A stretch of DNA of 34,009 nucleotides, taken from contig JAFEDF010000021.1 of NCBI GenBank assembly GCA_018241785.1, positions 1 to 34,009 of the forward strand. Direction: 5' to 3'. Positions 33,022 to 34,009 of this stretch are shown here, piece after piece. Position 1 is the first letter of the stretch; every line of letters starts with the position of its first letter. The translations under genes and the position numbers were made by a program. Origin of the DNA: Pseudomonadota bacterium. Lineage in GTDB: Bacteria > Pseudomonadota > Gammaproteobacteria > Burkholderiales > Casimicrobiaceae. The notes beneath the pieces were generated by a model that saw nothing but the letters and a program-made list of their open reading frames with translations, had not been told where the DNA came from and did not search any database.

Positions 33022-33699
33022 GTGAGCAGGAGCGCCTTTCCCGCACCGACCGTCGACGCGCTGCGCGGACTCTTTCCCGCGCTCGCCGACGCGGCGCCGT
33101 CGACGCTCGCGCGGATCGTCGACCACGGCCTCTACCGCAGGGCTCCGGCCGGCGCCGTCGTCTTTGACGCCCATACCCCGTGCGCGGGCTTTCCGCTGGT
33201 CCTCGCCGGAACGCTCAAGGTGCTCCAGCGCTATCCGAACGGGCGCGAACTGCAACTCTACCGCGTGAAGCCCGGCGAGAGCTGTCTCCTGTCGGGAAGC
33301 TGCCTGCTCGGCCATGCGGACTATACGGCGAGCGGCGTCGCCGAGACCGATGTCGAGATCCTCGTCGTGCCGGCCGCCGACTTCCACGCGCTGATGGCGA
33401 TGGACGCAGTGTTTCGCAACCACGTGCTTGAGCTCTTCGGCGAACGCCTCGCGACACTGCTCGAACTCGTCGAAGCGATCGCGTACCAGAAACTCGATCA
33501 GCGTCTCGCCACGCTGCTACTCGCGAAGGACGACCCGGTCCGCGCAACCCACCAGTCGCTCGCCGACGAGCTCGGGAGCGTGCGCGAAATCGTCACCCGC
33601 CTGCTGCGCGCCTTCGAGGACAAGGGATGGGTCGACCTCGCGCGCGAGCGCATCCGCATCACCGATCGCGGCGCGCTCGCGGCCCTCGCGAAGGCCTGA
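33022..33699 (+). CDS. Crp/Fnr-family transcriptional regulator
   Basis: Regulator of 225 aa. The N-terminal cyclic-nucleotide-binding-like beta-roll (residues about 15-125) carries VFDAHTPCAGFPLVLAGTLK and GESCLLSGSCLLGH. The C-terminal helix-turn-helix has HQSLADELGSVREIVTRLL, whose R-E-x-V-x-R recognition pattern suits TGTGA half-sites. There is no N-terminal Cys cluster as in FNR, and cAMP-contact residues of Crp are not obvious, so the signal is unknown. The two Cys residues at the end of the beta-roll could sense redox or sulfur species; that is inference. The GTG at 33022 is chosen because a -10 box overlaps the ATG at 32953. It is divergent from the DUF2892/RND operon. Confidence 0.9.
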   Translation: MSRSAFPAPTVDALRGLFPALADAAPSTLARIVDHGLYRRAPAGAVVFDAHTPCAGFPLVLAGTLKVLQRYPNGRELQLYRVKPGESCLLSGSCLLGHADYTASGVAETDVEILVVPAADFHALMAMDAVFRNHVLELFGERLATLLELVEAIAYQKLDQRLATLLLAKDDPVRATHQSLADELGSVREIVTRLLRAFEDKGWVDLARERIRITDRGALAALAKA

Positions 33700-33745
33700 C
33701 GCGCGCCGCCGGCGGCATCAGCGGCCGCGCGGCCCAGGGAAGCTC

Positions 33746-34009
33746 TGCGAAACGGGAACGGACCCTGTTTCAGGGATCGGCCGCGCTGGGAAGCGGCGGG
33801 GATGCCGCGATGCGCGAGTTCGACCGCGAAGGCCAAGGGAGCGGGGTACGGTGACGGGCTCAAACACCGGCTGCGTTCCGCAGCCGAACTCGCGCGTCAC
33901 CGTACCCCGGTCCCTTGGCCTCCACGGTCGGTGTAGAGCGCGCCGGGGCATCTCCGCCGCTCGACCCGGCGCGGCCGATCCCTGAAACAGGGTCCGTTCC
34001 CATTTCGCA
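33746..34009. repeat. 264-bp near-palindrome (nested inverted repeats; MITE- or REP-like)
   Basis: Three nested inverted pairs share one centre at about 33877. The outer 45-bp arms (33746-33790 and 33965-34009) differ at 2 positions. The inner 35-bp arms (33822-33856 and 33895-33929) differ at 3. A core hairpin has CGGCTGCG and CGCAGCCG around TTC (33868-33886). The stretches between the pairs are also partly complementary (AGCGGCGG, GATGCC). Each outer arm itself contains CCCTG-TTT-CAGGG. No plausible coding sequence lies within it. It begins 47 bp after the regulator stop and may continue past the window end. Confidence 0.85.

What the first reader, a model, noticed from the sequence alone, without database searches (positions are those of the whole stretch)
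33746..34009. Giant near-palindrome of nested inverted repeats after the Crp/Fnr gene
Seen directly: outer arms of 45 bp with 2 mismatches, inner arms of 35 bp with 3 mismatches, and a perfect 8-bp core hairpin, all centred at about 33877, with partial complementarity in between. As RNA it would be one long hairpin; as DNA a cruciform or fold-back element. The mini-hairpin CCCTG-TTT-CAGGG in each arm recalls paired REP units. Inference: a non-autonomous element (MITE or REP doublet) moved by a transposase encoded elsewhere. It could also be a dispersed regulatory or termination unit.
Basis: partly seen in the sequence, partly recalled or inferred. Interest (0 to 1): 0.7.

Follow-up and report, generated by a model that had tools for sequence, protein, structure and literature searches.

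The report
IS5-type hairpin MITE at stop codons
The giant palindrome is one copy of a roughly 290-base mobile DNA element with no gene of its own, found in about forty or more places in this genome; it is likely moved by an IS5-type enzyme encoded elsewhere, and it often sits exactly on the stop codons of neighbouring genes, so that it would do them little harm.

Summary
The palindrome is real and far beyond chance (DNA fold z -19.5, RNA z -21.6). The element starts 12 bases further left than reported and is cut by the contig end on the right. The own genome has about 40 matching places (only 40 of 174 candidates were scored). Eighteen copies have both ends and unlike flanks, and run from one tetranucleotide to another, mostly CTAG. 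The same tip, CTAG-GGAAGCTCTGCG, bounds unrelated short elements in sister genomes and 1.16-1.21 kb insertion sequences with an IS5-family transposase. Sister species G011 has empty sites: at two loci a single CTAG or TTAG holds the stop codons of two convergent genes, and in our genome the duplication gives each gene its own stop. Thirteen of 18 complete copies touch a coding-like stop. Private changes in the inner stem are mirrored in both arms in 13 of 16 cases, which template switching would explain. No DDE_Tnp_1 transposase was found in the own genome, so the mover is inferred. Closest relative in print: MITEPsy1 of Pseudomonas syringae. Verdict: a new IS5-family MITE, a known kind, with two unusual habits.

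The parts
33734..34009 (.). the element copy in the window, lacking its last 12 bases at the contig end
   Evidence: alignment with other copies and shared tip
33734..33737 (.). left target tetranucleotide CCAG, probably a decayed CTAG
   Evidence: CTAG or a near variant at this place in the complete copies
33738..33760 (+). left tip (IS5-type terminal inverted repeat) GGAAGCTCTGCGAAACGGGAACG
   Evidence: shared with other families and with IS5-family ISs
33746..33790 (.). left outer arm
33821..33859 (.). left inner arm
33869..33885 (.). central short hairpin GGCTGCG-TTC-CGCAGCC
   Evidence: sequence, fold
33892..33930 (.). right inner arm
33965..34009 (.). right outer arm, cut by the contig end
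33022..33699 (+). neighbouring Crp/Fnr-type regulator gene (start codon chosen by eye); its stop lies 34 bases before the element, so this copy does not touch it
   Evidence: PF00027 49.2 bits and PF13545 49.1 bits; ORF

Best explanation
The palindrome is one copy of a multi-copy, non-coding element bounded by IS5-type inverted repeats and CTAG/YTAR target sites, and it is likely moved in trans by an IS5-family transposase. Shown: many copies; sharp tips shared with unrelated short elements and with autonomous IS5-family ISs; empty sites in a sister species with one CTAG or TTAG where the filled site has one at each end. Inferred: the transposase acts on the two tips and inserts the element into YTAR, mostly CTAG, duplicating the four bases. 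CTAG is scarce in this genome and over a third of the free CTAGs sampled are coding-like stop codons, so the element often lands on a stop; the duplication then gives each of two convergent genes its own stop, and the insertion would cost little. Inferred: the long palindrome is kept symmetrical by template switching between its arms during replication.
For: About 40 places in the own genome (40 of 174 candidates scored); tip 60 forward + 62 reverse hits against 10 + 4 for the control. Same tip on unrelated interiors in G001 and G002. Three ISs of 1163-1209 bp with both tips and one transposase frame: PF01609 and PF05598 in 3 of 3, NCBIfam transpos_IS5_4 in 2 of 2 scanned, 329 and 334 bits against a cut-off of 140. 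Three of 4 fetched plasmid relatives, annotated IS5 family transposase, have CTAG plus similar tips at both ends. Empty sites in G011. Stop codons at 13 of 18 complete copies.
Against: No DDE_Tnp_1 was found in G000, G001, G002 or G011, so no resident mover is seen; these are drafts and a multi-copy IS could be missing. Only 7 of 18 complete copies have CTAG on both sides and 1 has TTAA on both; 10 have unlike tetranucleotides, 9 by one base and 1 by two. Because CTAG is palindromic, a 2-bp TA duplication cannot be told from a 4-bp one at most sites. Of 12 junction alignments only about 5 are clear. The tips in the plasmid ISs differ from the MITE tip by 2 to 4 of 16 bases.
Confidence: 0.92

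Rival explanations
1. A REP/REPIN-type element moved by a RAYT (Y1) transposase.
For: Palindromic units between genes in many copies.
Against: No Y1_Tnp in the own genome, while the same search rings in 5 of 14 control genomes; mini-hairpin not conserved; CTAG at the borders and the same tips on IS5-family ISs.
Confidence: 0.02
2. An IS630/Tc1-type MITE with TA duplication inside CTAG.
For: CTAG contains TA; the own genome has one intact IS630-type gene whose IS also starts at CTAG.
Against: That IS has different ends, CTAG-TGTCGTGAGTTA; the MITE tips match IS5-family ISs; TTAA on both sides of L027 fits a 4-bp duplication better.
Confidence: 0.04
3. A host-maintained bidirectional terminator or insulator between genes, spread or kept because of its RNA hairpin.
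For: Very stable hairpin; stops of convergent genes at both sides in 2 of 18 copies, at one side in 11 more; mirrored changes keep pairing.
Against: Substantial matches in only 2 of 61 genomes, patchy within the genus; same tips with other interiors; clean empty sites. It could be a side effect of the insertion.
Confidence: 0.05
4. A fold-back assembly artefact at the contig edge.
For: 8 contig-edge copies have flanks that mirror each other, 19-20 of 20 bases or all of the 10 or 18 available; the window copy ends exactly at its contig end.
Against: 18 own copies have both ends and unlike flanks (2 to 12 of 20 matching); the window's two arms differ; sister genome G011 holds the family too.
Confidence: 0.02

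Closest known systems
MITEPsy1 of Pseudomonas syringae pv. phaseolicola (PMC3189936, passages seen)
   Same: Non-coding, marked 'IS5?', tip GGAAGGTCTGAAAAAGCC (here GGAAGCTCTGCGAAACGG), inserts at CTAG or YTAA with a 4-nt duplication, thought to derive from an IS5-family IS (ISPsy2); insertions were trapped.
   Different: 100 nt and few copies there; here about 290 bp, nearly fully palindromic and about 40 or more places; no resident IS5-type gene found here.
IS5 of E. coli and the NCBIfam transpos_IS5_4 group
   Same: Target Py-T-A-Pu, most often CTAG (PMC5493358, passages; YTAR in PMC10359306, passages); the ISs with our tip carry transposases of this group.
   Different: The window element has no gene.
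RUP, Correia and Nezha elements (recalled, not looked up)
   Same: Dispersed bacterial MITEs thought to be moved in trans by an IS transposase.
   Different: Recalled as IS630-type with TA targets; other tips.
REP/REPIN with RAYT (recalled)
   Same: Multi-copy palindromes between genes.
   Different: No Y1 transposase in the own genome, no conserved REP-like mini-hairpin, IS5-type tips.

Membership tests
IS5-family MITE | terminal inverted repeats shared with an autonomous IS5-family IS | tested here: met
   tip CTAGGGAASCTCTGCG bounds L186, L223, L235 (right ends with 2-3 mismatches); IS5 transposase by NCBIfam in 2 of 2 scanned and PF01609 in 3 of 3; 3 of 4 plasmid relatives
IS5-family MITE | 4-bp YTAR target duplication | tested here: met
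   CTAG/CTAG in 7 and TTAA/TTAA in 1 of 18 complete copies, 10 decayed or unlike; single CTAG or TTAG in empty sites. At palindromic CTAG, 2 bp and 4 bp cannot be told apart
IS5-family MITE | short, non-coding, many copies | tested here: met
   266-304 bp and short forms of 96 and 111 bp; about 40 places
IS5-family MITE | transposase source in the same genome | tested here: not met
   PF01609: none in G000, G001, G002, G011; drafts, so a gap is possible. Not strictly defining
IS5-family MITE | movement by that transposase | not testable with these tools
   needs a mobility assay
REP/REPIN (RAYT) | Y1 transposase in the genome | tested here: not met
   PF01797: 0 of 1
REP/REPIN (RAYT) | conserved short REP hairpin in each arm | tested here: not met
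   CCCTGTTTCAGGG only in the window and a few copies
IS630-type MITE | ends shared with an IS630-type IS | tested here: not met
   own IS630-type IS has other ends; other genomes' IS630-type loci not compared
Rfam RNA family | match over gathering score | tested here: not met
   11 matches, all microRNA-precursor models below their gathering scores

The most novel reading that the evidence does not exclude
A mobile hairpin that makes itself harmless: by targeting CTAG, a scarce tetranucleotide of which over a third are stop codons, it slips between convergent genes that share one stop, hands each gene its own copy of the stop, and leaves a 290-base palindrome whose arms are re-copied from each other by template switching, so that each copy drifts as a mirrored pair. 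The genome would thus be a natural record of palindrome correction in a living bacterium.
Probability: 0.35. Interest if true: 0.6.

Novelty: new member of a known kind. Interest (0 to 1): 0.4.

Why it matters
It explains a conspicuous palindrome and links a MITE family of an uncultured Burkholderiales genus to IS5-type ends. Two sister genomes give filled and empty alleles in which target duplication visibly separates the overlapping stop codons of two genes. The many near-identical palindromes with private mirrored changes offer a natural data set for how long inverted repeats stay symmetrical.

Tried and rejected
Y1_Tnp in the own genome: none. PF01609: none in the four carriers; 11 of 22 genus genomes have it; in the 19 loci so fetched a loose search (up to 4 of 15 mismatches) gave scattered chance-like hits and one solitary IS5-like end, GGGAACCTCTGAACAAG, in L149, not bounding its transposase. 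Own IS630-type IS: different ends. Tip hits in G015 and G025 were judged chance: no partner end within the fetched 6.5 kb and the reversed control also gave single hits in 4 of 64 genomes. No match to the tip in viral contigs or to the element in plasmids and phages. An early impression that free CTAG is nearly absent (2 sites) came from short, selected loci; the 400-kb sample gave 43 free sites, and I dropped the idea that targets are saturated. Mirrored changes as an assembly artefact: bubble merging should pull rare variants to the high-coverage consensus, and unmirrored changes lie 6-7 bases from mirrored ones in L002 and L029; this is reasoning, not proof, and long reads are needed. IS1272's repeat-replacing transposition without duplications (PMC5678879, abstract) does not fit the paired CTAGs.

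Full report
WHAT IS THERE. The reported arms, core hairpin and centre are correct and far from chance: DNA fold z -19.5, RNA fold z -21.6, with 0 of 200 shuffles reaching either. The window is contig C133 of a 3.49-Mb draft genome of 262 contigs (G000), and the feature ends exactly at the contig end. Comparison with other copies shows that the unit starts 12 bases further left, at 33734/33738, and lacks its last 12 bases on the right. The upstream gene is a Crp/Fnr-type regulator (PF00027, PF13545) that stops at 33699, so this copy does not touch its stop codon.

COPIES. A nucleotide search of the own genome scored 40 of 174 first-look candidates and gave 82 rows (both strands), about 40 distinct places by my count, a lower bound. 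The 15-base tip with up to 2 mismatches hits 60 times forward and 62 reverse, against 10 and 4 for the reversed control. In the loci held, 38 distinct stretches are bounded by two tips. Of 27 in the own genome, 18 have unlike flanks (16 long, 266-304 bp; 2 short, 96 and 111 bp; 2 to 12 of 20 flank bases mirror). Eight contig-edge copies (L005, L006, L015, L016, L017, L018, L021, L023) have flanks that mirror each other in 19-20 of 20 bases or in all of the 10 or 18 available: fold-back assembly artefacts, dropped from counts on complete copies. L095 (3 of 3 available) was unclear and dropped too. The other 11 are one G011 copy (L032) and 10 copies of other families in G001 and G002.

DISTRIBUTION. 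Of 61 genomes (own and 60 relatives) 9 have any match to the element, but only G000 and G011 have substantial ones. The tip is wider: with up to 1 mismatch it occurs in 6 of 64 genomes of the family, of which G015 and G025 are probably chance. G001 and G002 carry it on unrelated interiors (271 bp and 57-61 bp; 225-237 bp and 129 bp). In a sample of 399 genomes of the order the exact pattern occurs in 3, all of this genus (one of them is G015). Named records of sister genomes are Burkholderiales/Betaproteobacteria MAGs; that G001 and G002 are those records I infer from matching contig positions. So the tip looks like the mobile signal and the palindromic interior like passenger DNA (inference).

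THE AUTONOMOUS PARTNER. A scan of public genomes for CTAGGGAASCTCTGCGNAA gave 67 stretches. In three (L186, L223, L235) a matching opposite end, with 2-3 mismatches, closes a 1163-1209 bp unit with one long transposase frame. All three carry PF01609 and PF05598; the two scanned with NCBIfam are transpos_IS5_4 with 329 and 334 bits, cut-off 140. Many other stretches are short elements with an opposite tip 57-281 bp away at up to 4 mismatches. I fetched 4 of these 15: three have tips within 2-4 of 16 bases of the query tip at both ends, 1172-1199 bp apart, with CTAG on both sides; in the fourth only a left end was found.

TARGET AND EMPTY SITES. In the 18 complete own copies the end tetranucleotides are CTAG on both sides in 7, TTAA on both sides in 1 (L027), and unlike in 10 (9 by one base, L013 by two). 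E. coli IS5 duplicates Py-T-A-Pu, most often CTAG (PMC5493358, passages; YTAR in PMC10359306, passages). I joined flanks of up to 160 bp of 17 copies (L010 left out, its left flank being short) and searched four sister genomes, then aligned 12 loci at the junction. Clear: L026, a single CTAG in G011 in an ungapped alignment (92% identity); L011, TTAA; L007, ATAG, which is not YTAR; L020, TTAG; L088, a CTAG in a gapped alignment. Not clear and not used: L022, L057, L058, L012, L013, L004. The L027 row compares with G018, which has another repeat there; in G011 the L027 site is occupied (L032; the two flanks match 87% on either side of it), an old shared insertion. The other 5 of 17 were not aligned.

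STOP CODONS. At L020 the two convergent genes of G011 end in one TTAG (TAG on one strand, TAA on the other) and their C-termini align with those of G000, where each gene ends in its own CTAG beside the element. At L026 the ungapped alignment shows the same with CTAG. Of 80 fetched tip flanks, 38 are the stop of a coding-like ORF (a heuristic on ORF length and GC by codon position, not an annotation). Of the 18 complete copies, 13 have such a stop on at least one side, 2 on both. The background is not low: 16 of 43 free CTAG sites in a 400-kb sample of the own genome and 35 of 90 in G011. The excess is modest (Fisher p 0.023). CTAG is scarce: 46 in 400 kb against 2.76 per kb expected from the window's base composition. 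The simplest reading is that the target rule brings many copies to gene ends and selection removes harmful ones (inference).

MIRRORED ARMS. In the 16 complete long own copies, the two arms of one copy differ at 3.9 of 50 consensus positions on average, arms of different copies at 6.8; 0 of 20000 permutations reach this, and 12 of 29 private variants are mirrored. Leaving out L011 (internal duplication) and L027 (old insertion), 13 of 16 private variants of the inner stem (positions 28-50) are mirrored in both arms but only 2 of 11 at the outer tip (1-27); over all variant sites of that stem 21 of 28 are mirrored, against a mean of 3.1 and a maximum of 13 in 5000 permutations. In 1 of 18 copies tested (16 own, L032, the window) the centre is inverted relative to the arms (L088); 16 are standard, 1 unclear. 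Arm homogenisation and spacer inversion are the two outcomes named for template switching between inverted repeats (PMC8604942, start of abstract in the listing; also PMC8794818, abstract). Against: L027 and L032 have unlike arms, gene conversion or selection for pairing would leave similar traces, and these are draft assemblies. Template switching is therefore inferred.

PLACE AMONG KNOWN THINGS. The element fits an IS5-family MITE. MITEPsy1 of P. syringae (100 nt, 'IS5?', tip GGAAGGTCTGAAAAAGCC, target CTAG or YTAA; PMC3189936, passages) is the nearest in print that I found. On stop-codon placement one full-text search gave 0 papers with all terms, and no title on the point stood out among those listed; this is weak evidence of novelty, since those are capped lists and most subscription papers are not held.

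Noticed in passing
L005, L021, L072 (own genome); L100 right end (G001): A variant tip, CTAGGTGTGAAGCTC in place of CTAGGGAAGCTC.
   Followed up: no
L309 (G018), at the site of L027: A different repeat (GAAAGTAGGGTCGGA...) sits where G000 and G011 carry the MITE: a possible second kind of element using the same gap.
   Followed up: no
400-kb samples of G000 (L310-L329) and G011 (L330-L349): CTAG is half as frequent in G000 (46) as in G011 (91), and CTAG-type stops are 17 of 377 against 34 of 373 coding-like ORFs; cause unknown.
   Followed up: partly
L174 (own genome, C187): One intact IS630-type transposase with its own ends at CTAG (CTAGTGTCGTGAGTTA), unrelated to the MITE tips.
   Followed up: partly
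   Followed up: no
contig edges of G000: At least 8 contigs end in artificial inverted duplications of their own flank around this element, a trap for gene or repeat counts in this assembly.
   Followed up: yes
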